Virus record (IMG/VR): IMGVR_UViG_3300010371_000086
Span: 1-32,263 of that record
Strand: one strand, 5' to 3'
Length of the DNA: 32,263 nucleotides
From: a virus
Under the pieces are notes generated by a model. It worked only from the letters and a program-made list of their open reading frames with translations. It searched no databases and was not told the DNA's origin. Each line of letters begins with the position of its first letter. The first letter of the stretch is position 1. This document shows, piece by piece, positions 2,289-29,920 of this stretch. Both the position numbers and the translations under genes were made by a program.

Positions 2289-2636
2289 TTAGATTGACGA
2301 AGGCTTCGAGAATGTCGGCTGATCGACGCGCGCTACTTGAGCCGGCATATCGATACGAGCGGTGTTGGCCGTTGTGAATGCCGAAAGATCAGAACCAACC
2401 GCATACGACAGAGTCTTCACATTCGACGAACCGTCGTTTGCGATCTTGCGAGCACGAATGTGCGTCGTGTCGACAATCTGCGTGATGAGGACTGCTTGAT
2501 TTTTCCCAGTTGTGTCGCTTAGATAAGCGACACAGCCAACGTAATACGGGTCTGACTTGGCAACTTGAAGCTTGCCGTCTGCGCCACCGTTTCCGGCGAG
2601 CGCTTCGCCGAACTTCGGAATTTGAATGCTAGGCAT
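2289..2636 (-). CDS. Small probable virion protein, function unknown
   Basis: This gene encodes 115 residues with no family I recognise. The protein is rich in Ala, Thr, Ser, Val and Asp with alternating hydrophobic residues, so a small beta-rich structural protein is likely. It lies 18 nt upstream of the tail fibre on the same strand, in the late gene block, which suggests a fibre-attachment, chaperone or minor virion role (inference). The ATG at 2636 has a GAGGAG Shine-Dalgarno that sits inside a short inverted repeat (2645-2658). The conserved minus-strand sequence CGGCAATCTT lies about 21 nt upstream of the start. Confidence 0.7.
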   Translation of the reverse strand: MPSIQIPKFGEALAGNGGADGKLQVAKSDPYYVGCVAYLSDTTGKNQAVLITQIVDTTHIRARKIANDGSSNVKTLSYAVGSDLSAFTTANTARIDMPAQVARVDQPTFSKPSSI

Positions 2637-2644
2637 TTTGAGAG

Positions 2645-2658
2645 TACTCCTCGGAGTA
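2645..2658 (-). repeat. Short inverted repeat over the ribosome-binding site of the 2636 gene
   Basis: TACTCC and GGAGTA form two 6-base arms around two bases. On the minus-strand transcript this can fold as a 5-bp stem with a four-base loop, and the GGAG of the Shine-Dalgarno lies in the 3' arm. It could modulate translation of the small protein downstream. The stem is short and may be chance. Confidence 0.3.
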
Positions 2659-2667
2659 AGATTGCCG
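2658..2667 (-). promoter_or_regulatory. Conserved minus-strand upstream sequence, copy 1 (CGGCAATCTT)
   Basis: Read on the minus strand, this sequence lies 21 nt upstream of the ATG at 2636. Similar sequences precede the starts at 6251, 10165, 17605 and 29897. It could be part of a late promoter. Function is inferred from recurrence only. Confidence 0.3.
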
Positions 2668-2669
2668 TG

Positions 2670-3182: not shown

Positions 3183-3574
3183 TGTTCTAGATAGATTGCA
3201 GCCCTGCGTAGAAGCTCGGGCGAGTCTTTAAAGTGGCCGAGGCCATGATTGCAGTTTGCGCAGAGCAATCCTCGGATCCGCTGCGTTTTATGGTCATGAT
3301 CGATTGAGAGACGAGGCTTAGAGCTGCAAGGTTTTTGGCAGATAGCGCAAACGCCGTTCTGATTTGCAACCATTTCCTCGAATTTCTCGACGGTGAGCCC
3401 ATGATACCTCCGACGGAGAGTCTTTGCTTTGATACGATCGGGATGTGCCAGCCTCCACGCATCACTTGCTGCCTTAAAACAGACGATACAAGGTAGACGC
3501 AACTTGCCGTTTCTTTTATAGAAATCCTCGGTACTCCGAAAATTTTGGCACTTAGTGCAAAACTTTTGTTCCAT
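3179..3574 (-). CDS. HNH endonuclease, recombination endonuclease VII family
   Basis: The product is 131 residues from the ATG at 3574; an in-frame TTG at 3613 is less likely. An N-terminal zinc-ribbon-like part (C6/C9 and C29/C32) is followed by the endonuclease VII core: C76/C79, the DHDH active-site motif at 92-95, and C105/C108 in LLCANCN. T4 endonuclease VII resolves branched DNA during packaging, whereas stand-alone relatives scattered in phage genomes are usually mobile homing nucleases. Placement directly in front of the endolysin, overlapping it by four bases, with an unrelated plus-strand gene behind it, favours a mobile element that has settled without breaking the lysis gene. Neither start has a strong Shine-Dalgarno, so expression may be low. 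Confidence 0.85.
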   Translation of the reverse strand: MEQKFCTKCQNFRSTEDFYKRNGKLRLPCIVCFKAASDAWRLAHPDRIKAKTLRRRYHGLTVEKFEEMVANQNGVCAICQKPCSSKPRLSIDHDHKTQRIRGLLCANCNHGLGHFKDSPELLRRAAIYLEQ

Positions 3575-3600
3575 GCAGTCAAGATTGTTACCGAATGTGC

Positions 3601-6271: not shown

Positions 6272-6281
6272 AAGATTGCCG
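6272..6281 (-). promoter_or_regulatory. Conserved minus-strand upstream sequence, copy 2 (CGGCAATCTT)
   Basis: This is identical over 10 bases to the copy before the 2636 gene and has almost the same distance (20 versus 21 nt) to the start codon at 6251. It is a candidate late-gene signal. Confidence 0.35.
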
Positions 6282-10176: not shown

Positions 10177-10186
10177 AAGATTACGG
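10177..10186 (-). promoter_or_regulatory. Conserved minus-strand upstream sequence, copy 3 (CCGTAATCTT)
   Basis: This is a variant of the CGGCAATCTT sequence, 11 nt upstream of the ATG at 10165. It overlaps the stop region of the upstream gene, and chance similarity cannot be excluded. Confidence 0.2.
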
Positions 10187-17642: not shown

Positions 17643-17651
17643 AAGATTGCG
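17643..17651 (-). promoter_or_regulatory. Conserved minus-strand upstream sequence, copy 4 (CGCAATCTT)
   Basis: This copy lies 37 nt upstream of the gpJ-like start, in the divergent gap between the two gene blocks. It abuts the first plus-strand TATAAG element, so the two signals sit back to back. It is a candidate late promoter element. Confidence 0.35.
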
Positions 17652-17669
17652 ATCCGCTATAAGTGAAGT
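17651..17669 (+). promoter_or_regulatory. TATAAG element 1, before the HNH gene
   Basis: GATCCGCTATAAG is followed by 6 nt and then the GTG start at 17670. A degenerate partial copy (TTTCGCTAAAG) lies just upstream at about 17632-17642. It belongs to the 11-copy family described in the findings. Confidence 0.7.
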
Positions 17670-18128
17670 GTGGAAGTATCAGTAGATCTGTTTTGGGCAA
17701 AGGTCGACCGATCCCAGCTCTCGCCGGGAGGCTGTTGGTTGTGGACGGCTGCCGTTCGAAGCGGCTATGGCGTATTTAGCGTCAAGCGAGTGCCGACCTA
17801 TGCCCATCGTATCTCTTTTGAGCTAGAACATGGGCCAATTGGTGACTCTCATGTGCTTCATAGATGTGACGTGAAGCTGTGCGTGAATCCAGATCACCTA
17901 TTCCTCGGCACACACCAAGACAACATGCAGGACATGGTTCTGAAGAGACGCCACGCTTACAAGATTCGTCATGGTCGTAGGAAACTCACTGAGGATCAAG
18001 TTGAGGCAATCAAGGAAATCTATCACGAGGGCGCACTGAGCCAGAAGGCGATTGCGCTGCTCTATGGTATCAGCCATCAACAAGTGAGTCGAATCGTGAA
18101 CGGGACACGATGGCGAGATCCGCTATAA
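17670..18128 (+). CDS. HNH homing-type endonuclease with C-terminal helix-turn-helix
   Basis: The 152-residue product starts with GTG, placed 6 nt after TATAAG as in most genes of this cassette. An N-terminal CWLWTAA..GYG segment is typical of phage HNH_3 proteins. It is followed by HRISFELEHG and the zinc/active-site region VLHRCDVKLCVNPDHLFLG (H64, C66, C71, N73, H76). Residues 105-148 (KLTEDQVEAIKEIY onward, then ISHQQVSRIVNG) form a helix-turn-helix that probably reads target DNA. This is the first gene of the plus-strand block, at the border with the baseplate genes. It may therefore have helped move the cassette into this site (inference). The stop codon TAA lies inside the next TATAAG element. 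Confidence 0.88.
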   Translation: MEVSVDLFWAKVDRSQLSPGGCWLWTAAVRSGYGVFSVKRVPTYAHRISFELEHGPIGDSHVLHRCDVKLCVNPDHLFLGTHQDNMQDMVLKRRHAYKIRHGRRKLTEDQVEAIKEIYHEGALSQKAIALLYGISHQQVSRIVNGTRWRDPL

Positions 18129-18135
18129 GAAGTCC
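18117..18135 (+). promoter_or_regulatory. TATAAG element 2
   Basis: GATCCGCTATAAG ends 6 nt before the ATG at 18136. The TAA stop of the HNH gene is contained within TATAAG, so coding sequence and signal overlap. Confidence 0.7.
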
Positions 18136-18372
18136 ATGACAATTTATCCTACTCTTGAATCGTCTCGTGAAGCCCTTACCAAGACAATCCTCGACAGAAT
18201 CGTTGCCAGTCTTCAACAGTATGGCTCTTTTAAAGTTAAGATGTTCGATCATACATATGAAGTACAGAGAATCTATCGTTCTCATTTCGAAGGCTTCAAG
18301 CTCGGCGGCTACGAAGTTTCTGAAAGAGTAGCCGATGAGATCACTGTAACGATTCCTATGCAGCAATCATAA
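18136..18372 (+). CDS. Hypothetical protein, 78 residues
   Basis: I recognise no family. The protein has an amphipathic helix-like N-terminus (SSREALTKTILDRIVASLQQYG), then beta-like strands (FKVKMFDHTYEVQRIYRSHF) and a C-terminal EITVTIPM strand, so it is probably a small soluble alpha/beta protein. It has its own TATAAG element and is followed by another before the next gene, forming a single-gene unit. Confidence 0.7.
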   Translation: MTIYPTLESSREALTKTILDRIVASLQQYGSFKVKMFDHTYEVQRIYRSHFEGFKLGGYEVSERVADEITVTIPMQQS

Positions 18373-18391
18373 CAATCGCTATAAGAGGGAC
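18373..18391 (+). promoter_or_regulatory. TATAAG element 3
   Basis: CAATCGCTATAAG is followed by AGGGAC and the ATG at 18392. It deviates from the family only in its first bases, and the spacing to the start codon is again 6 nt. Confidence 0.7.
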
Positions 18392-18640
18392 ATGAAGGCT
18401 GCACCCGATCCGAACGTCATCACGATTCCGACGACTGCTCAGTCGGTCGACAGGCTCTATGAGCACGTCAAGACGATGGCGATCGAGGCCATGGCCAAGG
18501 AAGGCTACTTCAAGTGGTCTCCCACCGTGCAGCAGCAATCGCACAAGAACATCGCCACACGACTAATGGGCGAATTTGCGGCAGCCGGCTACACATCCCA
18601 AATGTACGGCGCAACCGGTTTCCAAGTGTGGTTGCCCTAA
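18392..18640 (+). CDS. Hypothetical protein, 82 residues
   Basis: I recognise no family. The N-terminus (NVITIPTTAQSVDRLYEHVK) leads into helical sequence, and the C-terminus ends in GFQVWLP. The pattern suggests a small soluble alpha/beta protein. The layout (helix, LMGEFAAAGY, G-F-x-V strand) loosely recalls the preceding 78-residue protein, but no clear paralogy was seen. It is a single-gene unit between two TATAAG elements. Confidence 0.7.
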   Translation: MKAAPDPNVITIPTTAQSVDRLYEHVKTMAIEAMAKEGYFKWSPTVQQQSHKNIATRLMGEFAAAGYTSQMYGATGFQVWLP

Positions 18641-18658
18641 ATTCGCTATAAGAGGCAC
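18640..18658 (+). promoter_or_regulatory. TATAAG element 4
   Basis: ATTCGCTATAAG is followed by AGGCAC and the ATG at 18659. It abuts the stop codon of the preceding gene. No TTGACA-like -35 box lies at the expected distance. Confidence 0.7.
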
Positions 18659-19012
18659 ATGAGCACGAAAACCGGCAAGAAGATCACCATCACGCAAGAG
18701 ATGTGGGACAAGGCTGTTGCAGAAGCGATTCCCGAGCTGGGTAAGCCGGGTGGCGAGTACTGCAAGAATTGTCTGATGGCTCAGGCTTTCAAGACGACCG
18801 GCATCAAGGTGCATGGCGTCAGCTTTAGCTGGGTCACTGGTCGCGACGACAATGACAGGAGCGTCAGCCTCGGCCTGGGCGATGATGCTGTCGATCTGCG
18901 CCAGAAATTCGATATGTACGCTCGTGCGATTGCGCACAAGATGACCGACGTGCCTGCTCTGCCGACGTTCCCCGTCGAAGTCTCATACGACGATTGGCGA
19001 TTCGATGAATAA
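18659..19012 (+). CDS. Hypothetical protein, 117 residues, with CxxC motif
   Basis: I recognise no family. An N-terminal 'TITQEMWDKAVAEAI' helix is followed by a YCKNCLMAQAF motif near residue 36 that could bind metal or form a disulfide, then SFSWV and a helix around residues 80-95. The C-terminus is acidic. It is the first gene of a two-gene unit, and its last eight bases overlap the next reading frame, which implies translational coupling. Confidence 0.7.
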   Translation: MSTKTGKKITITQEMWDKAVAEAIPELGKPGGEYCKNCLMAQAFKTTGIKVHGVSFSWVTGRDDNDRSVSLGLGDDAVDLRQKFDMYARAIAHKMTDVPALPTFPVEVSYDDWRFDE

Positions 19013-19412
19013 GGCTGTCCAAGAAGCAATCGAGCGTGGTCAGAAGAAGCACGCCGAAGAGCAAGAAGAGAAGCGTCTCGCAGCCGAGAAGAAGCGCGAG
19101 GAAGAGCGAATTGCCCACGAGAAGTGGAAAGCCGACACTCTCGCTTGCTGTCACGCTTGGATCAAGGACAAGCTGCCAACGCTGCTCGAAAGAGAAGCGG
19201 GGCTCGGCCACGACAAGATCACGTTCAACTCCTATTACAAGCCCACAGAGCTTGAAAATTGGGGTGACGAAGCTCTTGCTCTGCTGATGCCTTTGCTCGT
19301 CACCGAGGCTGGTCTCAAGGCAACAGCAACTCGTCACTGGGTAGAACCAGTCAACGACGACGGCATGCATTGGGAAGGTCACTATAGCTACAACTTCGAG
19401 ATCCGCTGGTAG
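19005..19412 (+). CDS. Hypothetical protein with N-terminal charged coiled coil, 135 residues
   Basis: I recognise no family. Residues about 3-45 are very rich in Glu, Lys and Arg (EERIAHEK, EKKREEE) and should form a long helix or coiled coil. A compact domain follows with CCHAWIKDKLP, NSYYKP and C-terminal aromatic strands (HYSYNFEIRW). The start ATG lies inside the last codons of the preceding gene. It ends immediately before a TATAAG element. Confidence 0.7.
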   Translation: MNKAVQEAIERGQKKHAEEQEEKRLAAEKKREEERIAHEKWKADTLACCHAWIKDKLPTLLEREAGLGHDKITFNSYYKPTELENWGDEALALLMPLLVTEAGLKATATRHWVEPVNDDGMHWEGHYSYNFEIRW

Positions 19413-19430
19413 ATCCGCTATAAGCGGTAC
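19412..19430 (+). promoter_or_regulatory. TATAAG element 5
   Basis: GATCCGCTATAAG is followed by CGGTAC and a GTG start at 19431. The preserved 6-nt spacing is the main reason to choose GTG over the in-frame ATG at 19479. Confidence 0.7.
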
Positions 19431-19649
19431 GTGAAGCTTTCAACCATCAAGTTCCATTTTCATGTTCAGCGACACCGCATGAAGAAGCGGATTCGTCGCA
19501 CTCTCTATCGATCGGTCTGCTTCGTTGTTGGTCACAAGTGGTTCAACTCAACGAGCTGGAGCGGAGTCAGCAAGACATGTAAGCGCTGCTCGAAGTTCTG
19601 GATGATTCGTCGATCGACGGTGATTCGCTCGGGTGGAGTTAATTTCTAA
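19431..19649 (+). CDS. Basic zinc-ribbon-like miniprotein, 72 residues
   Basis: A possible metal site is C30, H35 and C50/C53 in the pattern C-x4-H...CKRC. This 'C..GH.W...C.RC' layout recurs in small phage and prophage zinc-ribbon proteins. The protein is strongly basic (FHVQRHRMKKRIRRTLYR) and might bind nucleic acid (inference). The GTG start is supported by the upstream element. The TAA stop overlaps the ATG of the next gene (TAATG), so the two form a coupled pair. Confidence 0.65.
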   Translation: MKLSTIKFHFHVQRHRMKKRIRRTLYRSVCFVVGHKWFNSTSWSGVSKTCKRCSKFWMIRRSTVIRSGGVNF

Positions 19650-20584
19650 TGAGCCAAGGCAAAGATCCATTTTGGGATGCACAAGTAAAGCGTATTGCTG
19701 AATTGATGGAAGAATCAATTCGCTCAGGCAAGCCGATCGTCACTGCTGTACAGGTTCCTCGCACGCCTGAGAAGGTCGACATCTTTTTCGATCCACAAGG
19801 GCGAGACTTCGACAAGATCACTCTACCGAGAGTGAAGGGCTTCACGCATCCTCGTCAGCCTCTCGTCGCTGCGATGATCCCTCCGCACGCGATGCCGGCA
19901 CACGTGATTCCTGGTGGCATCGGTCCTGTGAGCATGAACGCGCCCTATACGGGTGGTCGCACGAGCCCGCAGGCAATCCAGCACGCTCAGTCGAATGGCT
20001 GGGATGTGCTCGCACCAAAGGGCGATGAGCTATTCATCGACATCGACTCCGATGCGCAGTACCAAGCGTATCTGCGTGCGAAGCCGGTGTTCGAGCAGAA
20101 CATCATGGCATTTGTCGCTGAAGCGGTCATTCCTTCGAAGTCAGGCACGCCGGGCAAGAAGCATATCTACATTCGCCTCTCAAGGGCTCTGGGGTCGAGA
20201 AAGACGCGCATCACGTACCAAGCGATGTTGCAATCAGATGCAGTACGAGAGATCTTGAGCCAGTCACGCTACGACGCTGGCGATCCCGAGCCGGTCCTCT
20301 TCTTCGAGAATCCTGGTTGTGCACCGAAGGGCTTCGGCCGCTATCTGTATCAGGCTCCTGCGGTCGGATCGATTACGGTCAGTGCATCTCCAGCACCTAA
20401 GCAGAGCTTGGGCTACTTCACCAAGCCTTCGGCACCAGCACAGCCCAAACCGGCTGTGTTCTCTTCTGCACCAGCACCAGCAGATCCGAACGATCCCACG
20501 AAGTGGCCGCACAAGTGCGATCGTTGTGGTGGACCAGCCTACAACGGTTTGTTCAGCTCCGATTGCAAGAATAAGTGCCACTAG
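19649..20584 (+). CDS. Primase/AEP-like protein with C-terminal zinc finger (putative)
   Basis: This 311-residue protein is the largest of the cassette. The central part (about 112-225) reads NGWDVLAPKGDELFIDIDSD, then SKSGTPGKKHIYIRL, an Arg-rich QAMLQSDAVREIL helix and PVLFFEN. The D131-x-D133 pair followed by Ser...His (S165, H172) resembles motifs I and II of archaeo-eukaryotic primase folds, and similar uncharacterised phage proteins share the LQSD..RE / LFFE pattern. Activity is not shown. A Pro/Ala-rich linker (about 245-288) leads to a zinc finger (C290, C293, C306, C310) closely similar to the one ending the 130-residue protein at 25663. It could act in priming or nucleic-acid repair; confidence in the coding call is high and in the function low. 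Confidence 0.75.
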   Translation: MSQGKDPFWDAQVKRIAELMEESIRSGKPIVTAVQVPRTPEKVDIFFDPQGRDFDKITLPRVKGFTHPRQPLVAAMIPPHAMPAHVIPGGIGPVSMNAPYTGGRTSPQAIQHAQSNGWDVLAPKGDELFIDIDSDAQYQAYLRAKPVFEQNIMAFVAEAVIPSKSGTPGKKHIYIRLSRALGSRKTRITYQAMLQSDAVREILSQSRYDAGDPEPVLFFENPGCAPKGFGRYLYQAPAVGSITVSASPAPKQSLGYFTKPSAPAQPKPAVFSSAPAPADPNDPTKWPHKCDRCGGPAYNGLFSSDCKNKCH

Positions 20585-20586
20585 TC

Positions 20587-20605
20587 GATTCGCTATAAGG
20601 GGCAC
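20587..20605 (+). promoter_or_regulatory. TATAAG element 6
   Basis: GATTCGCTATAAG is followed by GGGCAC and the ATG at 20606, with 6-nt spacing. It starts 2 nt after the stop codon of the preceding gene. Confidence 0.7.
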
Positions 20606-21076
20606 ATGAGTGCCCTTTTGCCGGAATCGAAGACATCACTCAGATATCTGGTCGACGATTACGATATGCGACAGATCCGCGTGGCATTTGGCCTGGGCGG
20701 ATTCGAAGAGATCGGTAGTGGTCGCCATCGCGTCACCTTCCGCAATCCCTACACCAGTAGCGTGATCAAGGTGCCTCACTCCAGAGCGGGTGAGGATGCG
20801 AACAAGAACGAATACGACATGTTCGTTCGCTTGAAAGATCCTCGTCTCGCTCGCTGCTCAATCGAAGTGTTCGAGGGTGTCAAGATCCTCCACATGGAAG
20901 AGGTCGTCGACGCTGCGCCCTGCGCTTTGAGTGCGGGAGAATTCTATCGGAAGAACCGTCAGAAGTTCGAGCCGTGGTGTGGTGAGTGTGATGGCGGTCA
21001 GTGCGGCTGGACTCGTGATGGACGACTCGTGGCGTGGGACTACGCGAACCACGAGTACGTTTTCAAGAGGAAATAG
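20606..21076 (+). CDS. Minimal protein-kinase-like protein (putative, catalytic loop missing)
   Basis: This 156-residue protein shows a kinase-like N-lobe pattern: a glycine-containing loop (EEIGSGRHRVTF, 35-45), a Lys in a VIKVP strand (K55), a Glu in the following helix (N68-E69-Y70) and a hinge-like LHMEEV (96-100). Near the end, WTRDGRLVAWDYAN (136-149) could correspond to the metal-binding DFG-type strand, with D145. No HRD-type catalytic loop is visible and the length is about half that of a kinase domain, so it is probably a pseudokinase-like or shrunken fold. CGECDGGQC may bind metal. The target is unknown. It is the first gene of a unit with its own TATAAG element; its TAG overlaps the next GTG. 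Confidence 0.7.
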   Translation: MSALLPESKTSLRYLVDDYDMRQIRVAFGLGGFEEIGSGRHRVTFRNPYTSSVIKVPHSRAGEDANKNEYDMFVRLKDPRLARCSIEVFEGVKILHMEEVVDAAPCALSAGEFYRKNRQKFEPWCGECDGGQCGWTRDGRLVAWDYANHEYVFKRK

Positions 21077-21240
21077 TGCTACGCGGCTGCCCACACCACG
21101 AGATTTGTCGCAATGAGATCCAGAACTGGCTTCGTTGGATGAAAGCGCCTTGGATCACGAGGGACGTACACGAAGTTCCTCCTCCAGGCTTGCCTCCATG
21201 CTGGGATGCCCTCCAGATCTATTGGACAGATTCGATATAA
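21076..21240 (+). CDS. Small hypothetical protein, 54 residues
   Basis: The GTG at 21076 overlaps the preceding TAG (TAGTG) and has AGAGGA just upstream, so I start it here rather than at an earlier ATG that would overlap by 42 bases. The protein is rich in Trp, Pro and Cys (CPHHEIC, NWLRWMKAPW), and CPHHEIC could bind a metal. The function is unknown. The TAA stop lies inside the next TATAAG element. Confidence 0.55.
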   Translation: MLRGCPHHEICRNEIQNWLRWMKAPWITRDVHEVPPPGLPPCWDALQIYWTDSI

Positions 21241-21251
21241 GGAATACAAAT
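21229..21251 (+). promoter_or_regulatory. TATAAG element 7 (variant)
   Basis: GATTCGATATAAG has one change in the CGC core. Ten bases separate TATAAG from the ATG at 21252. The stop codon of the preceding gene lies inside it. Confidence 0.6.
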
Positions 21252-21593
21252 ATGGAAATCTCGTACGGCAGCAAGCGCAAGGATGGGTCGATCTCGTTTT
21301 ACCTCGGTGAGCAAATCACGAGAGAACAGCTCGAAACTGTCGTCGAGAAGCATCGTGAAGGCTTGTTGATGACAGGTGGTGATGTGCATCTCGATCCCAC
21401 GCATACCATCCTCAGCTACAACGCGAAGGCTCCAGGCTGCATCATGCAGCATCTCTATCACGATCCCTCGCCGTCCAATGCATTCTGTCGCAATCGTGCA
21501 GTCGCGATTTGGTTCGACGACATGTACAAGCCGACGTGGCCTGACTGGATGCTACGCGACATGATGATGCAATCAAAGCTGGTCGAAGAATAG
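21252..21593 (+). CDS. Hypothetical protein, 113 residues
   Basis: I recognise no family. The start is set at the ATG after the TATAAG element; a longer frame opens upstream but would overlap the 54-residue gene. A beta-hairpin-like N-terminus (SYGSKRKDGSISFYLGEQ) precedes a helix (TREQLETVVEKHREG). Residues 42-75 include His and Cys (HLDPTHTIL, PGCIMQHLYHD) that could form a metal site. The C-terminus is helical and Met-rich (WMLRDMMMQSKL). It is a single-gene unit. Confidence 0.7.
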   Translation: MEISYGSKRKDGSISFYLGEQITREQLETVVEKHREGLLMTGGDVHLDPTHTILSYNAKAPGCIMQHLYHDPSPSNAFCRNRAVAIWFDDMYKPTWPDWMLRDMMMQSKLVEE

Positions 21594-21611
21594 ATCCGCT
21601 ATAAGAGGCAC
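21593..21611 (+). promoter_or_regulatory. TATAAG element 8, with separate Shine-Dalgarno
   Basis: GATCCGCTATAAG is followed by AGGCAC as elsewhere, but the ATG is 18 nt downstream at 21624 and has its own AGAGG Shine-Dalgarno. The block is therefore conserved even where it is not the ribosome-binding site. Confidence 0.75.
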
Positions 21612-21623
21612 ACAGAGGTCGAA

Positions 21624-22181
21624 ATGGAAAACAAGGAATCAGAGAAGTTCGTCAAGTCGTCGGTTCGTTGGACGCCTGCTCTCAAGCGCAAGGCTCTCGT
21701 GATCGCTCTCGAAGCGGAGCGCACTGCGGAGCGTCTCGACGCTGGTGTCGAGAAGAAGTTCGGCACGGGCGAAGCCTTCGATGAGAAGGGTCAGCCGGTC
21801 TGTGCATTCGGTTGCGTGCTCTCGGCAGCTCACTGCTTGCCCGAGGAAGTGCAGCGCGTGATGAAGATGTCCAAGGAAGAGCTGAAGAAGCTCATCGAAG
21901 AGGACGAAGAGCTGTACGCCATCGAGAACAACGTCGAGGCGTTCGCCAAGTCGCTCGGGCTCAACGAGGAAGATGTCGAGTACGGCAAGACCGAGACGGT
22001 CACGGGCGAAAGCGGTTACCCGTATTCGTCGACGCCGCCCAGCACGCTGCGTCTCACGTGCGATCGCGTGGGCGAAGCCAACGACGACACCAAGTCGGGC
22101 TGGGAGCGTCGCCGCAAGAAGATCGCGAAGGCTCTTCGCAACTTCTCGAAGGCTCTCCTCCAGGATTCCGGCCTTCTGTAA
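21624..22181 (+). CDS. Hypothetical acidic/helical protein, 185 residues
   Basis: I recognise no family with confidence. The N-terminal half is helical (RKALVIALEAERTAERLDAG) and contains PVCAFGCVLSAAHCLP near residue 60, a Cys-rich helix. This is followed by a strongly acidic, Lys-rich helix (SKEELKKLIEEDEELY), which may form a coiled coil, and a basic C-terminus (WERRRKKIAKALRNF). The TAA stop overlaps the ATG of the next gene. It is the first gene of a three-gene unit that has a normal leader and Shine-Dalgarno after the TATAAG element. Confidence 0.7.
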   Translation: MENKESEKFVKSSVRWTPALKRKALVIALEAERTAERLDAGVEKKFGTGEAFDEKGQPVCAFGCVLSAAHCLPEEVQRVMKMSKEELKKLIEEDEELYAIENNVEAFAKSLGLNEEDVEYGKTETVTGESGYPYSSTPPSTLRLTCDRVGEANDDTKSGWERRRKKIAKALRNFSKALLQDSGLL

Positions 22182-22366
22182 TGTTCGAGCACGGCGGCAA
22201 TACCCACAATTGCGGCTGCCCCATGGGCAACTGCGATTGTCCTACGGTGGTTCAAAAACCGCTGTGTGAGAAGCATCCCACCTACAAAGTCCTACGCAAG
22301 CCCACAGCCAAGTGCCTCAAGTGCCATGAGCTGTGGGCTCGCAAGCTCGCTCTCCAGGAACAGTAA
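22181..22366 (+). CDS. Cysteine-rich miniprotein, 61 residues, probable zinc binder
   Basis: The start ATG overlaps the previous stop (TAATG). The protein holds an N-terminal cluster (CGCPMGNCDC, residues 11-20) and a second set of potential ligands (C29, H32, C45, C48, H49), so one or two zinc sites are likely. No family was recognised. The next gene starts one base after its stop. Confidence 0.65.
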   Translation: MFEHGGNTHNCGCPMGNCDCPTVVQKPLCEKHPTYKVLRKPTAKCLKCHELWARKLALQEQ

Positions 22367-22367
22367 C

Positions 22368-22496
22368 ATGCGCGATTGCCACTTCTGCGACGGCACCTTC
22401 TATAGTGCCTATTTCCACGAATGTTGGTGGCATGAGGAATGGTTTTCGTTCTGGAAAGAGCTGTGCAAGTGGGTCTGGTACTTCGGCGGTAGATAG
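22368..22496 (+). CDS. Very small Trp/Cys-rich protein, 42 residues
   Basis: This open frame begins one base after the preceding stop and ends just before a TATAAG element. The 42-residue product has CHFC (4-7), C19 and C33, and eight aromatic residues in the last two thirds (FSFWKELCKWVWYF), so it may fold around zinc or sit on a membrane surface. The exact fit between neighbours and the coupling are the evidence that it is real; the function is unknown. Confidence 0.55.
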   Translation: MRDCHFCDGTFYSAYFHECWWHEEWFSFWKELCKWVWYFGGR

Positions 22497-22514
22497 ATTC
22501 GCTATAAGGGCCAC
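22496..22514 (+). promoter_or_regulatory. TATAAG element 9, with separate Shine-Dalgarno
   Basis: GATTCGCTATAAG is followed by GGCCAC, then AGGAGG, and the ATG at 22527, 18 nt after TATAAG. The layout is identical to element 8. Confidence 0.75.
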
Positions 22515-22526
22515 AGGAGGCCCAAA

Positions 22527-22847
22527 ATGGCGAAGAAGCTCAGTCAGGCAGACAAGGATCTGAATGCTCTGATCGCGAAGAAGGGGCGTGTCACCGCGTC
22601 TCGCGTGATCCTCATGGAGCGTGTCGCGATCCTGGATGCACAACTCGCGAACATCAACGACAGCATCTACACCTACCGTCAAGAGAAGTCTCGCGTCGAA
22701 GGCGAAACCCTCACCGCTACCGAGCGCTCGATGGTTCTCGCTCGTGACTACATCCCCGCCATCAAGTCCGTGCGTGCTCGCACGAACCTCGGTCTGAAGG
22801 AAGCGAAGGATCTGGTCGACGCTTACCGTCAGAAGAACGGGCTGTAG
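22527..22847 (+). CDS. Coiled-coil protein ending in a ribosomal L7/L12-like helical hairpin
   Basis: In this 106-residue protein, residues 1-60 are helical and charged. Residues 76-99 read IPAIKSVRARTNLGLKEAKD plus LVDA. This matches the core of the bL12 C-terminal domain, where bacteria have the pattern IKAVR..TGLGLKEAKDLVE. In the ribosome this surface contacts translation factors such as EF-Tu and EF-G. The rest of the bL12 domain is absent, so this is not a full ribosomal protein. It may be a stalk mimic that binds a host factor, or use the hairpin for other protein contacts (inference). The product at 23090 has a related C-terminus. The Shine-Dalgarno AGGAGG is strong, suggesting high expression. 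Confidence 0.75.
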   Translation: MAKKLSQADKDLNALIAKKGRVTASRVILMERVAILDAQLANINDSIYTYRQEKSRVEGETLTATERSMVLARDYIPAIKSVRARTNLGLKEAKDLVDAYRQKNGL

Positions 22848-22849
22848 TC

Positions 22850-23047
22850 ATGGCAAAGCAACTCGTCGTGTGCCTCTTCTGCGGAAGGGACCAGACTACT
22901 ATTCCCGACGAAGAGACAATGGTTCAGTCGGGCAATGCGTCACAGGGCATTTGTTCGATCTGCATTCCGCAGTGCCAAGCCTTGTGCGCAGCTAGTGCGC
23001 GTAAGAAGGGCTGGAAGAAGAGCACCAAGCTGAGTCTGGTGAAGTAA
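22850..23047 (+). CDS. ClpX-type zinc-finger miniprotein, 65 residues
   Basis: The start lies 2 nt after the L12-like gene, so the two are co-translated. C8/C11 (VCLFCGRDQ) and C35/C38 with a further C42 (GICSICIPQC) match the C-x2-C...C-x2-C-x3-C pattern of the ClpX N-terminal zinc-binding domain (family pattern C.FCGK.Q ... ICDECV.LC). In ClpX this domain dimerises and docks substrates and adaptors. The AAA+ part is missing, and the loop between the Cys pairs is 23 residues rather than about 18. A free domain of this type could compete for ClpXP adaptors (inference). The C-terminus is basic (RKKGWKKSTK). Confidence 0.7.
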   Translation: MAKQLVVCLFCGRDQTTIPDEETMVQSGNASQGICSICIPQCQALCAASARKKGWKKSTKLSLVK

Positions 23048-23067
23048 TCACCAGAAGTTTCCCAACT

Positions 23068-23089
23068 AATTCGCTATAAGGGCAACGTC
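23068..23089 (+). promoter_or_regulatory. TATAAG element 10
   Basis: AATTCGCTATAAG is followed by GGCAACGTC and the ATG at 23090, 9 nt after TATAAG. It heads a six-gene unit that includes coaD. Confidence 0.7.
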
Positions 23090-23431
23090 ATGTCCAAATC
23101 GAAGAAGAGCCAAGAGCAAAAGAATCTCGAACGCGAGATCGAGAAGGTGCTCAAGCAGAAGGACAAGCTTGTGGCAAAGCGTCTCCGTATGGAGATCGCG
23201 AACCGGATCATCGAGCGTCAGATGAATGCTCTCTCCAACACACTCAATCTCCTCATCAACAAGATGATGGAAGCGCCCGTCGCTCTCACACAAGAAGAGC
23301 TTCGTCTCGCCCAGGTCAACCGTGGCCGCGCGATCATGGCGGTCCACGACCGTCTGAACCTGCCGATGGATGCAGCTCGTGCAATGGTCGACGACGCGCT
23401 TCGAGCGTCTCCGCACGAAGAGGAGAACTAA
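23090..23431 (+). CDS. Coiled-coil protein, divergent relative of the L7/L12-like protein
   Basis: Residues 1-60 of this 113-residue protein are Lys/Glu-rich and strongly helical. Residues 77-105 (RAIMAVHDRLNLPMDAARAM onward) match the layout of the L12-like hairpin in the 22527 product (A-I..V..R.NL...A...MVD). The two probably derive from one ancestral gene with the same design: an N-terminal coil, then the hairpin. The key LGLKEAK residues are changed here, so the binding partner may differ. It is the first gene of a unit that continues through membrane proteins and coaD. Confidence 0.7.
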   Translation: MSKSKKSQEQKNLEREIEKVLKQKDKLVAKRLRMEIANRIIERQMNALSNTLNLLINKMMEAPVALTQEELRLAQVNRGRAIMAVHDRLNLPMDAARAMVDDALRASPHEEEN

Positions 23432-23432
23432 C

Positions 23433-23633
23433 ATGAAGTCGTTCACGAAAGCGATCTGGTGGATCGTGCTCCTCGTCGGCATCGGCGGCATGGTCGCCAT
23501 GTGCTGCGGCTGCGTCGACGGTGCTTCAATCGAAGCCTGTGGCAAGGCGTGCGGTTCGGTTGGCGTGAGGTTCGTCAACTCCGAGCTGTGCCAGTGCAAT
23601 CCGCAGCCTTCCAAGGCAGAGAGCTGCAAGTAG
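23433..23633 (+). CDS. Exported or membrane-anchored Cys-rich miniprotein, 66 residues
   Basis: I start at the ATG one base after the preceding stop. A basic N-terminus and a hydrophobic segment (about 8-23) are followed by MCCGC. VAMC resembles a lipobox, but Met before the Cys is unusual, so it may be a lipoprotein or have a non-cleaved anchor. The mature part has further Cys (36, 40, 53, 55, 65), suggesting disulfides outside the cytoplasm. The function is unknown. The next gene begins directly after its stop. Confidence 0.65.
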   Translation: MKSFTKAIWWIVLLVGIGGMVAMCCGCVDGASIEACGKACGSVGVRFVNSELCQCNPQPSKAESCK

Positions 23634-23894
23634 ATGGGCCCGATTCTTATTATCCTTCTCGGCCTACTATGGGTTGTGCTGGGCTTCTTCTGCTTCGGCT
23701 TTTGTCATCAATTCTTCGACAACAGAAGCGATGTGGACGAGGAAGATCTGAGGGGAATCGCCTTCACGACTCTGTTCGCACCAATTGTCGCATTCATCGG
23801 TCTCTTTGTGGGTCTTTGCGTGTGGCTGTGGAAGGGCTTACTGGGTCCGATTGTCGATCTCGGTGCGAAGCTCGCTAAGAAGGTGCAAGAATGA
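23634..23894 (+). CDS. Two-pass membrane protein, 86 residues
   Basis: Two hydrophobic segments (about 2-24 and 41-66) flank a short acidic loop (DNRSDVDEEDLR), and the tail is amphipathic and basic (LGAKLAKKVQE). It could be a holin-like or other inner-membrane protein, but it lies far from the endolysin and nothing in it is specific. Its ATG follows the previous stop without a gap, and its end overlaps the next ATG (ATGA). Confidence 0.65.
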   Translation: MGPILIILLGLLWVVLGFFCFGFCHQFFDNRSDVDEEDLRGIAFTTLFAPIVAFIGLFVGLCVWLWKGLLGPIVDLGAKLAKKVQE

Positions 23895-24112
23895 TTGCTG
23901 TACCCATCATATTCGGAACTATCTTCTACGTGCTCCTCATGGTTTTGTCTGCTTCTATCATGGGTAAGATCACTGGAGGACGGTGCCAAACTGCTGATGG
24001 GGAAATCGGCGTATTCTTCGCCGTGCTCATCCCCATTATCGGTATCATGGTCGGAATTGTCGTAGGTGTCTGGTGGATCTGCACCGAAGCTTATCAAATT
24101 GGAGGCAGATAG
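23891..24112 (+). CDS. Two-pass membrane protein, 73 residues
   Basis: Hydrophobic segments at about 2-24 and 40-64 surround a short loop (KITGGRCQTADGEIG). It overlaps the preceding membrane gene (ATGA) and the following coaD-like gene (TAGTG), so all three are coupled. The two membrane proteins may act as a pair. A holin role cannot be excluded. Confidence 0.65.
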   Translation: MIAVPIIFGTIFYVLLMVLSASIMGKITGGRCQTADGEIGVFFAVLIPIIGIMVGIVVGVWWICTEAYQIGGR

Positions 24113-24624
24113 TGACACCGATCTACGCAGGCACGTTCGATCCCTTGACCAAGGGGCACATGAACGTCATCGACATGATGGTCAGGCACTTCGGCAAGGG
24201 CGTGGTGTTGCTCGCAACCAATCCGAACAAGCAGCACATGCTGACGGGTGAAGAGCGACACAACCTCATCCGCGATGCATTGCACCGCGACTACAATGCG
24301 ATACTGAAGTACAAGGTCGGCGTCTCAGCCACGTACGGATACGTCGCTGACTGGGCCCGCGATCTGTACGGCGACGAAGCCGTGCTCGTGCGTGGCGTGC
24401 GCAACGAGAAGGACTATCTCTACGAGAAAGAGATCGCCGACTTCAATCGCAAGCGTGCGCATGTCGAGACAATCCTGATTCCGGCCAACGACAACTACCA
24501 GCACGTCAGCTCGACGCAGATCAAGGAATGGATGCGCGTGGGCAACTGGGAAGAGATCAAGCGCTACACGCCGGAGTCGGTGATGCAGTACCTCATGCAG
24601 AAGATGATTCAGGAGAAGAAGTAA
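24112..24624 (+). CDS. coaD: Phosphopantetheine adenylyltransferase (CoaD-like)
   Basis: The 170-residue product starts at a GTG overlapping the previous stop (TAGTG). It has the full nucleotidyltransferase signature of CoaD, which transfers AMP from ATP to 4'-phosphopantetheine in coenzyme A synthesis: GTFDPLTKGH (7-16) with the T/HxGH motif, K40, VLVRGVR (91-97), YEKEIADFNRK (104-114) and HVSSTQIKEW (131-140). The spacing T8-H16-K40 equals that of E. coli CoaD T10-H18-K42. Length matches the bacterial enzyme (about 160). A related nucleotidyltransferase such as NMN adenylyltransferase is possible, but the RG-x-R and E-Y/YE regions fit CoaD best. A CoaD-like enzyme in a phage would be an auxiliary metabolic gene. 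It sits between membrane miniproteins and a pair of unknown paralogues. Confidence 0.88.
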   Translation: MTPIYAGTFDPLTKGHMNVIDMMVRHFGKGVVLLATNPNKQHMLTGEERHNLIRDALHRDYNAILKYKVGVSATYGYVADWARDLYGDEAVLVRGVRNEKDYLYEKEIADFNRKRAHVETILIPANDNYQHVSSTQIKEWMRVGNWEEIKRYTPESVMQYLMQKMIQEKK

Positions 24625-25055
24625 TGTCACTTCGTCATGACATCAAGTATTCCTGGGCTCCGTACGAGCGCGACTACGATTACGACTTTTTCGGCAAGCA
24701 CGTGTTCTATCCGCCGAAGGTCACTCTCGGTGCGTACACGATGAAGGAATGGAAAGACATGAACAAGAGTCTCAAGGACTGCACGACGGAAGAGATCCGT
24801 GCAGAGCTGAAGAAGCGTGAAGAGCGCGACCAGCACATGAAGGACATGACGTGGCAGAAGGTCATGAACGTGACCAACGATCAGTGGCCGGGCGGCATGA
24901 CGTTCCACCGCATTGCCAAGGCCGCTGCGATGCTCGGCTACAAGTACTTCGTGGTCAAGGGCTACCAGAACGTCTACGCCGTCGGAGAGCCGATGTGGAG
25001 CGAGCCCGGCTTCCACTTCAAGTCGCTGCCGATCGACAAGAGCGAGATTCGCTAA
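24624..25055 (+). CDS. Hypothetical protein, 143 residues, paralogue of the next gene
   Basis: The ATG overlaps the coaD stop (TAATG). An aromatic, Asp-rich N-terminus (YERDYDYDFFGKHVFYPP) is followed by a domain shared with the 25068 product: TTEEIRAELKKREERD, a TWQKVMNV segment, and LGYKYFVVKGYQNVYAV near the end. The family is unknown. The shared domain (helix, TW, LGYKYFV, YAV) probably folds as a small alpha/beta unit. The stop TAA lies inside the next upstream element. Confidence 0.75.
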   Translation: MSLRHDIKYSWAPYERDYDYDFFGKHVFYPPKVTLGAYTMKEWKDMNKSLKDCTTEEIRAELKKREERDQHMKDMTWQKVMNVTNDQWPGGMTFHRIAKAAAMLGYKYFVVKGYQNVYAVGEPMWSEPGFHFKSLPIDKSEIR

Positions 25056-25067
25056 AAGAGGTACATC
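25046..25067 (+). promoter_or_regulatory. TATAAG element 11 (TAAAAG variant)
   Basis: GATTCGCTAAAAG is followed by AGGTACATC and the ATG at 25068, 9 nt after the core. One base differs from TATAAG. It appears to be the last copy, and the eight genes after it are coupled. Confidence 0.65.
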
Positions 25068-25355
25068 ATGAGTATCGTGCTAAAGAACTTCACCACCGAA
25101 GAGCTGAAGGCCGAAGTGCAGCGTCGTGAGGATCGTGAGAAGATCCTCAAAGAGCTGACGTGGAAGAACGTGCTCAACATCGGAGCCAAGGCGGCAACCG
25201 AATGGGTGCAACTCCAGGAGTGCGCGAAGCACGCAGTCAAGCTCGGCTACAAGTACTTCGTCATCGACACGTACCCGCACCTGTACGCCGTCGACAACAA
25301 GCAGTGGTGCGGCTACCAGGAAGTCAAGTTCGCTTCGGTCTGCGACGTCAAGTGA
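25068..25355 (+). CDS. Hypothetical protein, 95 residues, tandem paralogue of the 24624 gene
   Basis: The whole protein aligns with the C-terminal two thirds of the preceding product: LK-x-x-TTEE, RRE-x-R, LTWKNVLN, LGYKYFVI and LYAV occur in the same order and spacing. It lacks the aromatic N-terminal extension. The LGYKYF core is retained while the middle has diverged, suggesting an old duplication with selection on the core. Its TGA overlaps a downstream GTG (GTGA). Confidence 0.75.
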   Translation: MSIVLKNFTTEELKAEVQRREDREKILKELTWKNVLNIGAKAATEWVQLQECAKHAVKLGYKYFVIDTYPHLYAVDNKQWCGYQEVKFASVCDVK

Positions 25356-27419: not shown

Positions 27420-29897
27420 TTAGCCCTGTAGCTTGAACGTAACAGGAATGTTCTGGCTCACGCCACGAATACCAACCTGCAATTGGATCAACACTGACGG
27501 ACCCTGCTTCGCAATCGAAGCTGATTCAACACCAGTGAACGTAGGATCGTCTGCAAAGAGATCCTGGCAGCTACGCAGTAGCGTCTGTGCATCCACATCT
27601 GCTGTGGACTCGCCCGGCTTGATTGCCAGACCAAAGCTCGGATGACGAATAAGCGTGCCCTGCGGCGTGCTCAAGCGAATGCGTGCGGTTTGTACGACGT
27701 TCGCGAGACCAACGGCAAGACGACAATCACCATCAGGTGTGATCGCAAGATCCAAGCTCTCTGTCAACAAGATGTCTACGCCAGCCGCCTCGACAAGCGG
27801 ATCGAAGTAGTTCACACCTGGAATCGACTTGAGACGATAATCCTCATCAGCCGGCTCATCAGGAGACGGGATGTAGATTTGCATCATCGAGTTGACAGTG
27901 TCAGGCAAGAACGCATGCAGCGATGCCTGAGCAAGCGTAGAGAAGCGTGCTAGGTCTGGATCGCCATCGAGCGTGAGGATCGTCTGGCCCGACATTAGCG
28001 TTTCGAGCTTCACGATGCGACGCGATGTACGTGCTGTCGTGGTCGAGCTGAGCCACACTTGCTGGCCGATGAATAGATTCGTTGCATCGCCGATGGTGAC
28101 TTGGTTGTCGTGACCATTCGTGAGAAGCGGCAGATCGAAGCCCACTTCATCTACGTACGGAGCGCGCAGGCCATTGAGCGTTGCAATCTCGATCCAACGA
28201 TCGGGCGATAGCAAGTAGCGCTGTGCAAGCTCTTCGAGTGTCATTCCATACGGGAACGGCACAGCGAACTTCGATTGAGGCTTCGTGAATGCGATGCCAG
28301 ACTTCGATGCAAGACCGGCAACATAGTTGATCGAGTCGACCTGGAATTGGTTGGTTTCACCAGATGCAGCGAGACGATTCAGCTCCATGATCACGCGATT
28401 CATCGCGAAGATGACTTGGAAGTCTTGCGTCGACGGTGTGCGAGTCGTAGTAGGTGCTGCACGCCCATACGTAGCTGCATACGTAGCGTTGCCAGCACCA
28501 ACGAAGTCAGCGTAGTCGCTCATAGCCTGTACGAATTGATCACGACGCTGTTCGTAGTCGAGGCGAGTGATCTGACGAACACGATCACGTTCATTCACGA
28601 TAGAGCGAATGACGAATGGAGATAGAGATACTGATGCGACGTTAATACGACTAAAGAAGTCATAGTACATCTCGGGGTTCTCGAAAATCTTTTGTGCGTA
28701 GTCAGTCGTCGTCGAGCCGTCGATGACATTCACGTCCTGCGAGAGACCGCCCTGAGTTGTTGCTTGATCTGTCTGCGAAGCGATCTGGCCAATCTGAGCA
28801 AACAAGTCCTGCGTCGATTGCTGAGCATTAAAGAATGCAGCGGGCACGCCCTGGGCTGCGTACTGCACGCCAACGGCAGTGATGATTGCTTGCTTTGCGT
28901 CGCTGATGATCTGCACGGGCAAATCGGCAAATGCGATCGGCACACCAAGAAGATCCTTCACCCACAACACGGTCTCACGGATCGGCGTGAACAAGAATGT
29001 ATCGACATCACCACCCACAGCTTGGATCGTGTCGCGAACACCTTCGAGTACCTGACGTGCCTTCATCAGCGATGCGAGCATGTTGCCAAGAGCAGAAGGC
29101 TGGCGAGTAACAGGTGTGAATGAATTAGCGGGTGGTCCTGACTGTTGCAGGTTCACGCGCTTCCACGCCTTGAATGCAAGCGTGAATGGGTACTCGTACG
29201 GAGAATCGGCAGAACGGGTTACGTTGAACTGCGTCGGAGTGACGAGATAGACAGCCTGATCCTTCCAGATAGCCAAAGCGAGGACGTAGTCCTGAGACGT
29301 TTGCAGCTTCTTGAACGCAGCATAGTTCTCAAAAAACTCTTGAAGCTTTCTGAATTGGTAATATCCAGTAGTCTTAGAAATGGTCGTGTCTTGGAAATCG
29401 TCATCAGTGACGATATTCGGAGAAGCTGATATGCCGGTAGCGAGCGAGACTGCCGATTGAGCTGTACGCTGAGCTGCGGCTACAGTGCCGGCAAAGATAC
29501 CTGAGAAGAATCCAGCGGTCGAGCGTGATGGAGCTGAGCCCTTGAGAGGCAACACTCCGGTCGTGCCGCTCATGGTGATAGCTCGAACAGGAGCACCGCC
29601 GTGCTGCTCGCTGAAGCCGTCGAGCTTCACTTCTCCATTGATCGCGAATGGCATCGAATACGAGACGCCTGATGGGCCGATCGGCAAGGTGAACTGCCAC
29701 TTCGAAGCAGTCTGGTCAATGATGTACTGACCGTTTTCACGCTTCACGAGGAGCAACTGATAAGGGAATTGCTGATTCCAACGAAGCGTATCGATGTCAG
29801 CATGAGTCCAGAACGGATCGTTCTGCTCTACTGAGCTATTGTCCTTCGCTGAGATAGCATCCGCATTGATCGATGCGTTGTTCTTAACCGTCGCCAT
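27420..29897 (-). CDS. Baseplate protein: LysM-like domain fused to a gp25-like wedge domain
   Basis: The product has 825 residues. The N-terminus (FWTHADIDTLRWNQQFPYQL, then TASKWQFTLPIGPSG) is a virion-type beta domain. A middle helical region follows. Residues about 545-590 (TLEELAQRYL, WIEIATLNGL) form a LysM-like segment as in T4 gp53-type baseplate proteins. The last about 125 residues (GDCRLAVGLANVVQTARIRL, then HPSFGL and a C-terminal VTFKLQG) resemble gp25/gpW, the conserved wedge protein that starts sheath assembly. Two usually separate baseplate proteins therefore appear fused. It follows the spike gene with a 23-nt gap and precedes gpJ in the ancestral order, but block D now intervenes. 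CGCAATCTT lies 14 nt upstream of its ATG. Confidence 0.8.
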   Translation of the reverse strand: MATVKNNASINADAISAKDNSSVEQNDPFWTHADIDTLRWNQQFPYQLLLVKRENGQYIIDQTASKWQFTLPIGPSGVSYSMPFAINGEVKLDGFSEQHGGAPVRAITMSGTTGVLPLKGSAPSRSTAGFFSGIFAGTVAAAQRTAQSAVSLATGISASPNIVTDDDFQDTTISKTTGYYQFRKLQEFFENYAAFKKLQTSQDYVLALAIWKDQAVYLVTPTQFNVTRSADSPYEYPFTLAFKAWKRVNLQQSGPPANSFTPVTRQPSALGNMLASLMKARQVLEGVRDTIQAVGGDVDTFLFTPIRETVLWVKDLLGVPIAFADLPVQIISDAKQAIITAVGVQYAAQGVPAAFFNAQQSTQDLFAQIGQIASQTDQATTQGGLSQDVNVIDGSTTTDYAQKIFENPEMYYDFFSRINVASVSLSPFVIRSIVNERDRVRQITRLDYEQRRDQFVQAMSDYADFVGAGNATYAATYGRAAPTTTRTPSTQDFQVIFAMNRVIMELNRLAASGETNQFQVDSINYVAGLASKSGIAFTKPQSKFAVPFPYGMTLEELAQRYLLSPDRWIEIATLNGLRAPYVDEVGFDLPLLTNGHDNQVTIGDATNLFIGQQVWLSSTTTARTSRRIVKLETLMSGQTILTLDGDPDLARFSTLAQASLHAFLPDTVNSMMQIYIPSPDEPADEDYRLKSIPGVNYFDPLVEAAGVDILLTESLDLAITPDGDCRLAVGLANVVQTARIRLSTPQGTLIRHPSFGLAIKPGESTADVDAQTLLRSCQDLFADDPTFTGVESASIAKQGPSVLIQLQVGIRGVSQNIPVTFKLQG

Positions 29898-29911: not shown

Positions 29912-29920
29912 AAGATTGCG
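29912..29920 (-). promoter_or_regulatory. Conserved minus-strand upstream sequence, copy 5 (CGCAATCTT)
   Basis: It lies between the spike gene and the gp25-like fusion, 14 nt from the start at 29897, and is followed on the minus strand by TATAG. It is a candidate late-gene signal. Confidence 0.35.

What the first reader, a model, noticed from the sequence alone, without database searches (positions are those of the whole stretch)
17651..25067. Eleven near-identical TATAAG elements, each heading a translation unit
GATYCGCTATAAG + RGGNAC occurs on the plus strand before the starts at 17670, 18136, 18392, 18659, 19431, 20606, 21252, 21624, 22527, 23090 and 25068, and I noticed no copy elsewhere in the window. 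Nearly all other cassette genes overlap, abut or lie within 2 nt of the previous stop. TATAAG resembles a -10 box, but no -35 is conserved, and the GATYCGC flank is fixed instead. In six copies the start codon is exactly 6 nt after TATAAG, where +1 would be expected, so these mRNAs may be leaderless. In elements 8 and 9 the start is exactly 18 nt away with its own Shine-Dalgarno, yet the block is intact, so it is not simply a ribosome-binding site. This suggests a dedicated phage promoter class, read by a phage RNA polymerase or a modified host enzyme. An RNA-processing site is the alternative.
Basis: partly seen in the sequence, partly recalled or inferred. Interest (0 to 1): 0.9.

Follow-up and report, generated by a model that had tools for sequence, protein, structure and literature searches.

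The report
Phage middle promoters without a -35
A large, previously undescribed relative of Myxococcus phage Mx1 switches on its DNA-replication and host-takeover genes from about 43 near-identical short promoters whose predicted RNA start falls exactly on the start codon in many cases, which gives a clear, testable picture of how this phage family times its genes.

Summary
All 11 elements are at the stated places, on the plus strand only; a matrix trained on 32 copies from outside the window scores them 19-31 bits, and the next best window site 9. The element recurs about 43 times in two contigs of one Mx1-like phage. It heads replication, nucleotide, chaperone and small-gene operons (0/78 structural homologues versus 22/64 others across five contigs, p=2e-9). 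Structural genes carry a second motif, YAATCT[TA]: eight copies in the window, all on the minus strand. In 42/43 copies the bases 6-7 nt after TATAAG are pyrimidine-purine, 26/27 where no start codon explains it. That marks a start site at fixed distance from a -10 box, so 16 mRNAs would be leaderless. Relatives carry diverged versions (CGTTCGCTATAGR, GATTCGATAGAA, AACGTGCTATAAT) in one clade of the phage sigma tree; at one orthologous site other phages have host-type promoters. No T7-like RNA polymerase gene was found. The family encodes one sigma factor that ends before region 4.2. Best reading: a middle promoter class of -10 plus adjacent-box type, read by host RNA polymerase modified by a phage factor.

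The parts
17651..17663 (+). element 1, GATCCGCTATAAG; inferred +1 at 17670 = GTG start codon of the HNH/HTH gene 17670-18128 (leaderless). Lies in the divergent gap to the late gene 11966-17605 (-)
   Evidence: YR at 17669/17670
18117..18129 (+). element 2; inferred +1 at 18136 = ATG of 18136-18372
18373..18385 (+). element 3 (CAATCGCTATAAG); inferred +1 at 18392 = ATG of 18392-18640
18640..18652 (+). element 4 (AATTCGCTATAAG); inferred +1 at 18659 = ATG of 18659-19012
19412..19424 (+). element 5; inferred +1 at 19431 = GTG of 19431-19649
20587..20599 (+). element 6; inferred +1 at 20606 = ATG of 20606-21076
21229..21241 (+). element 7 (GATTCGATATAAG); inferred +1 at 21248, 4-nt leader to ATG 21252
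21593..21605 (+). element 8; inferred +1 at 21612, 12-nt leader with Shine-Dalgarno to ATG 21624
22496..22508 (+). element 9; inferred +1 at 22515, 12-nt leader AGGAGGCCCAAA to ATG 22527
23068..23080 (+). element 10 (AATTCGCTATAAG); inferred +1 at 23087, 3-nt leader to ATG 23090
25046..25058 (+). element 11 (GATTCGCTAAAAG); inferred +1 at 25065, 3-nt leader to ATG 25068
29912..29918 (-). late motif CAATCTT before the baseplate-assembly gene 27420-29897 (-)
17643..17649 (-). late motif CAATCTT before the J-like baseplate gene 11966-17605 (-), back to back with element 1
10177..10183 (-). late motif TAATCTT before the kelch gene 6704-10165 (-)
6272..6278 (-). late motif CAATCTT before structural gene 4164-6251 (-)
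3581..3587 (-). late motif CAATCTT before the gene in 3179-3613 (-)
3192..3198 (-). late motif CAATCTA before the VanY/peptidase M15 endolysin-like gene 2670-3182 (-)
2658..2664 (-). late motif CAATCTT before gene 2289-2636 (-)
2290..2296 (-). late motif CAATCTA before gene 3-2270 (-)

Best explanation
The element is a dedicated pre-late (middle) promoter of a lytic, Mx1-like contractile-tailed phage. Anatomy, with +1 as the inferred start: box GATYCGC at -19 to -13, -10 hexamer TATAAG at -12 to -7, a G-rich spacer RGNNA, then Y(-1)R(+1). There is no -35. RNA starts at a fixed 7 nt after the hexamer, so about 16 of 43 mRNAs begin at the A/G of the start codon (leaderless); most others have short leaders, often with a Shine-Dalgarno. 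The promoters drive replication, nucleotide, chaperone and small takeover genes, and in G026 the operon NMNAT-helicase-sigma. That sigma, which ends before region 4.2, would then switch on late structural genes from the YAATCT[TA] motif. The middle element is most likely read by host RNA polymerase whose -35 contact has been replaced by recognition of the GATYCGC box, through an early phage factor or altered sigma. Shown: sequence, distribution, gene classes, YR signature, clade distribution, sigma gene and its truncation. Inferred: that it is a promoter, the start site, timing, leaderless translation.
For: Independent matrix finds exactly the 11 sites. 29 copies in G001 (window phage, 99.9% identical) and 14 in G026. 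YR at one fixed offset in 42/43 copies and 26/27 non-start copies. Box, G and A of the spacer are conserved also where the start is 18 nt away. 0/78 structural versus 22/64 other homologues carry it; the late motif shows the reverse, 28/78 versus 1/64. Diverged versions are top 10-mers of G018/G008 (55 and 35 copies, ~0.1 expected) and G002 (24, 0.03 expected). Right after the sigma gene the promoter is kept in ours, L173, L153, L193, L155, G018, while other family members have host-type TTGACA/TATAAT there. L166 versus L173 (54% vs 41% GC): element and 6-nt spacing kept, flanks diverged. Element phages form one clade of the sigma tree (0/500 shuffles). Host-type TTGAC-N15-18-TANNNT is enriched in Mx1, G011, G002 but not in ours or G018.
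Against: No transcript data exist. About a third of the genome is missing (115 kb of a family size near 170 kb). The hexamer ends in G, not T, unlike most sigma70 -10 boxes. The AYR positions could be part of a protein site rather than a start signature. YR is weaker in G018. One copy (G026 12887) lacks YR.
Confidence: 0.8

Rival explanations
1. The element is read directly by the phage-encoded sigma factor (sigma70 regions 2 to 4.1, no 4.2), which would serve both middle and late genes, as phiEco32 gp36 does. (This rivals only the 'reader' part of the best explanation, not the promoter part.)
For: Sigma without region 4.2 predicts single-element promoters with starts 6-8 bp downstream, exactly the geometry seen (PMC8948821 for phiEco32). 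It is the only recognisable sigma in the family genomes searched, and element phages form one clade in its tree.
Against: Sigma is family-wide, as is the late motif YAATCT, while the element is limited to one clade. Sigma lies inside an element-headed operon, so it would have to start its own synthesis.
Confidence: 0.33
2. Promoter of a phage single-subunit RNA polymerase (T7 type): GATTCGCTATA aligns in register with T7 GACTCACTATA, RNA starting right after TATA.
For: Contiguous, highly conserved block, no -35; G018 form CGCTATAG[GA] resembles CACTATAGG.
Against: No PF00940 gene in any of 17 records including near-complete G002, G018 and Mx1; T7 control found at 1e-110. The fixed YR lies 8-9 nt after TATA, not at +1/+2. 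Orthologous sites in relatives are host-type promoters, and L177 has a canonical TATAAT in the same frame.
Confidence: 0.05
3. RNA-processing site that trims polycistronic mRNA just before start codons.
For: Sits at gene junctions, often overlapping the previous stop codon.
Against: Element 1 has no same-strand gene upstream and lies between divergent genes; G026 has a back-to-back divergent pair. No shared RNA fold: of six stretches, three fold no better than shuffles, and the others form unrelated hairpins. Relatives have host-type promoters at the orthologous place.
Confidence: 0.04
4. Translation-initiation element (extended ribosome-binding site).
For: AAGRGG lies close to many starts.
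Against: Start distance ranges from 6 to 18 nt and more while the block and YR stay fixed; copies with a separate Shine-Dalgarno keep the block. Structural genes never have it.
Confidence: 0.02

Closest known systems
phiEco32 sigma gp36 middle/late promoters (PMC8948821)
   Same: Single contiguous element (tAATGTAtA), no -35, start 6-8 bp downstream, phage sigma without homology to region 4, host core enzyme
   Different: Different sequence; phiEco32 uses one element for middle and late genes, here two elements split non-structural and structural genes; our sigma keeps region 4.1; reader of the present element unproven
T4 late promoters (TATAAATA, sigma gp55) (own knowledge)
   Same: -10-only promoter, phage sigma lacking the -35-reading region
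   Different: T4's drives late genes; the present element avoids structural genes; no gp33/gp45-type coactivator identified
T4 middle promoters (MotA box + sigma70 -10, AsiA) (own knowledge)
   Same: Host sigma -10 plus a phage-specific box replacing the -35, for replication genes
   Different: MotA box is centred near -30; here the box abuts the -10; MotA or AsiA homologues were not specifically searched
AR9 / phiKZ early promoters (AAATATATATTAT-6N-G, PMC5312081)
   Same: Long contiguous element with start after exactly 6 nt
   Different: Read by virion multisubunit RNAP of jumbo phages; GC content, genome size and gene content differ; long leaders in AR9
T7-class promoters
   Same: In-register resemblance GACTCACTATA / GATTCGCTATA
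   Different: No T7-like RNAP found; start signature at another place
Myxococcus phage Mx1 (OR576727, PMC10720576)
   Same: Same phage family: syntenic baseplate, kelch, NAD and replication genes, same sigma, same late motif
   Different: Mx1 lacks CGCTATAAG and uses many TTGACA-type promoters; its AGATCCGC half-sites occur in both orientations (operator-like)

Membership tests
phage-sigma single-element promoters (phiEco32 gp36 / T4 gp55 type) | contiguous -10-like element without -35 | tested here: met
   logo over 29 copies, no signal from -40 to the box
phage-sigma single-element promoters (phiEco32 gp36 / T4 gp55 type) | phage encodes a sigma70-type factor lacking the -35-binding part | tested here: met
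   profile and fold match sigmaA regions 2-4.1, protein ends before 4.2
phage-sigma single-element promoters (phiEco32 gp36 / T4 gp55 type) | that sigma recognises this element | not testable with these tools
   needs in vitro transcription; indirect evidence points rather to the late motif
T7-type single-subunit RNAP promoters | phage encodes a PF00940 RNA polymerase | tested here: not met
   0 of 17 family records, T7 control positive; the window phage itself is about two thirds covered, and G026 was not in that search
T7-type single-subunit RNAP promoters | initiation at the base after TATA | tested here: inconclusive
   sequence signature places +1 seven nt after TATAAG; no RNA data
canonical sigma70 promoters | -35 TTGACA with 16-18 nt spacing | tested here: not met
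canonical sigma70 promoters | -10 TATAAT | tested here: inconclusive
   TATAAG in ours, TATAGR in G018, TATAAT/TATAGT in L177
T4 middle (MotA/AsiA) promoters | MotA/AsiA-like factor and box near -30 | not tested
   box is at -19 to -13 here; no targeted search for MotA or AsiA homologues was run
phiKZ-like multisubunit phage RNAP promoters | phage-encoded beta/beta' subunits | not tested
   no beta/beta' search was run over all large proteins; none seen among those annotated

The most novel reading that the evidence does not exclude
A clade of large phages has replaced host-type promoters by a new promoter kind in which a phage-encoded factor reads a 7-bp box directly abutting the -10, fixing the start so precisely that many mRNAs begin at the start codon. 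Together with a separate -10-only late class this splits the genome into two programmes, with one sigma lacking region 4.2 handed from the first to the second, and the box and -10 drift clade by clade with their reader.
Probability: 0.45. Interest if true: 0.75.

Novelty: new variant of a known kind. Interest (0 to 1): 0.62.

Why it matters
It gives a first promoter map for a widespread family of Mx1-like phages (122 sigma relatives in one scan of a viral collection) that has almost no functional data. It defines two promoter classes, a candidate cascade and predicted start sites to the base. The series TTGACA/TATAAT, box+TATAAT, GATTCGC+TATAAG, CGTTCGC+TATAGR across relatives is a natural experiment in how a virus escapes the need for a -35 element, and Mx1 in Myxococcus makes part of it testable in the laboratory.

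Tried and rejected
T7-like RNAP reading: attractive by sequence register, rejected for lack of the gene and for the position of the YR signature. The phage sigma as sole reader: kept as a rival, not the favourite, because sigma and the late motif are family-wide whereas the element is clade-limited. Mx1 AGATCCGC as a direct homologue: set aside, since it occurs in both orientations around -35 and -10 and as a palindrome, so it looks like an operator. G009 CAGATTGGCA repeats: pentapeptide-repeat-like 15-bp coding repeats, not promoters. Second sigma: region 2 and 4 models found only the known sigma and HNH-type HTHs or weak matches. Relatives in bacterial genomes: none. Exact megablast against named phages: none. 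G011 first seemed to lack sigma; it sits at its contig end (L187). Search of the literature for the motif: nothing relevant.
Full report
OBSERVATION. The 11 elements are present at the reported positions, on the plus strand only. GATYCGCTATAAG is exact in six, has one mismatch in four and two in one. CTATAAG occurs nine times against about one expected. As an independent test I built a 21-bp matrix from 32 copies lying outside the window: it finds exactly these 11 sites at 19.3-31.1 bits, the next window site scores 9.0 and the best of 20 surrogate sequences 12.7.

WHOSE GENOME. The window is a 32-kb virus record. It is 99.9% identical to part of a 71-kb IMG/VR contig (G001, IMGVR_UViG_3300010373_000043), which carries 29 copies on both strands. 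A 44-kb contig of the same metagenome (G026, IMGVR_UViG_3300010373_000070) carries 14 more, has complementary genes, no overlap, and tetranucleotide correlation 0.976 with G001 against 0.81 or less for every relative compared; I take it as another piece of the same phage (inference). The nearest named phage is Myxococcus phage Mx1 (169.6 kb; baseplate protein 40% identical, syntenic; PMC10720576). Related contigs were fetched with a two-sequence baseplate alignment and a sigma alignment.

ANATOMY. Over 29 copies the conserved block is A-G-A-T-Y-C-G-C-T-A-T-A-A-G-R-G-N-N-A-Y-R; nothing is conserved further upstream, so there is no -35. The last two positions were the informative surprise. In all 29 copies of G001 and 42 of 43 over both contigs, bases 6 and 7 after TATAAG are a pyrimidine and a purine. 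Sixteen of these purines are the first base of ATG/GTG, but in the other 27 copies it is still true 26 times (chance about 0.25 each). Pyrimidine at -1 and purine at +1, seven nucleotides after a -10 hexamer, is the textbook start signature (own knowledge). The natural reading is a -10 box TATAAG (-12 to -7) with an abutting box GATYCGC (-19 to -13). Sixteen transcripts would then start on the start codon; many of the others begin with a short leader, some of which open almost with the Shine-Dalgarno (elements 8 and 9: ACAGAGGTCGAA-ATG, AGGAGGCCCAAA-ATG). The spacer G and A are kept in those copies as well, so the block is not a ribosome-binding site.

WHICH GENES. Using Mx1 homologues as anchors in G018, G008, G002, G001 and G026, the element (in its clade-specific form) lies just upstream of 22 of 64 non-structural genes (GroEL, DNA polymerase III, helicase, RecA, SSB, Clp, dNMP kinase, NAMPT, peptide deformylase, AAA ATPase) and of none of 78 structural ones (Fisher p=2e-9). 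Structural genes carry a different motif, YAATCT[TA] (CAATCA in G018/G008): 28 of 78 structural and 1 of 64 others. It is found over the whole family. In the window it occurs eight times, all on the minus strand and each before a late-strand gene. At 17643-17663 the late motif and element 1 stand back to back between divergent operons.

RELATIVES. Diverged forms of the element are the most enriched words of related phages: GCGTTCGCTATAG[GA] (55 copies in G018, 35 in G008), AGATTCGATAGAA (24 in G002), with GATTCGCTAGAA (L149/L150), ATTCGCTATACG (L205), GATTCGCTATARA (L193), GTTTCGCTATAGG (L153), TTTCGCTATAAAG (L155) and AACGTGCTATAAT (L177, 5 copies, 0 in control). On a tree of 81 sigma proteins these phages fall in one clade of twelve (0 of 500 shuffles as clustered; basal support 81/64, so a single origin is likely, not proved). 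At one orthologous place, just after the sigma gene, the element is kept in at least six of them although flanks differ, and between L166 and L173 (54% and 41% GC) the 6-nt spacing is kept at other orthologous starts too; other family members have host-type TTGACA or TATAAT promoters at that place. Host-type TTGAC-N15-18-TANNNT is enriched in Mx1 (43 against 12), G011 (47 against 19) and G002 (25 against 4) but not in ours (3 against 4.8 and 0 against 3.1) nor G018 (4 against 5.9). So the class looks like a replacement for host-type promoters that dispensed with the -35.

READER. No T7-type polymerase gene was found in 17 family records, with T7 itself found at 1e-110. The family-wide sigma (47% identical to the query in our phage, L166) matches sigmaA/sigma70 from region 2 to region 4.1 and stops exactly before region 4.2, the -35 reader. 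This explains promoters without -35 and closely parallels phiEco32 gp36, whose single-element promoters start 6-8 bp downstream (PMC8948821). Because this sigma and the late motif are both family-wide while the element is clade-limited, and because sigma itself is in an element-headed operon in ours and G018/G008, I assign sigma to the late motif and leave the element to host RNA polymerase modified by another, unidentified early factor. Sigma reading both remains a serious rival (0.33). A screen for clade-restricted regulators was inconclusive.

ALTERNATIVES. RNA processing: element 1 has no same-strand gene upstream, G026 has a back-to-back pair, folds are not shared, and relatives have plain promoters at the same site. 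Ribosome-binding site: rejected above. Chance: excluded.

LIMITS. Everything is sequence inference: no transcript has been mapped, the host is unknown, about a third of the genome is missing, timing is inferred from gene content, and a phiKZ-type multisubunit RNAP was not searched for specifically.

Noticed in passing
window 29912, 17643, 10177, 6272, 3581, 3192, 2658, 2290 (minus strand): A second promoter-like motif YAATCT[TA] precedes the late-strand genes and occurs nowhere on the plus strand; it is family-wide.
   Followed up: yes
L166:9995-11011 (G026), Mx1 2071-3078: Family-wide phage sigma factor, sigma70 regions 2-4.1 without 4.2; 122 relatives in viral contigs.
   Followed up: yes
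L038-L041 (Mx1): Mx1 has AGATCCGC / GCGGATCT half-sites in either orientation between TTGACA and TAGTAT, some as a palindrome AGATCC-GCTAGTAT-GGATCT: looks like an operator on early promoters.
   Followed up: partly
Mx1, e.g. 125841, 115767, 84523 (minus): Mx1 has another start-proximal word WAGATCAACGCAGTA..GRCATG that may be its own middle promoter.
   Followed up: partly
window 19400-19424: The left half of the element is tandemly duplicated (GATCCGCTGGTA GATCCGCTATAAG) across the previous stop codon.
   Followed up: no
window 24625-25055 and 25068-25355: Neighbouring genes look like tandem paralogues (shared MTWQK/LTWK and LGYKYF stretches); the second has its own element.
   Followed up: no
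window 24073-24624 (+): Nucleotidyltransferase of the NMNAT/PPAT kind; Mx1 has several NAD/CoA genes in the same region and G026 puts an NMNAT homologue in the sigma operon.
   Followed up: partly
window 17670-18128 and L037:9367-9840: HNH endonuclease genes with a C-terminal helix-turn-helix that weakly matches sigma region 4, both close behind a copy of the element.
   Followed up: partly
L115-L120 (G009), start and 28.4-29 kb: Long genes with 15-bp periodic DNA repeats (pentapeptide-repeat-like) mimic a motif.
   Followed up: partly
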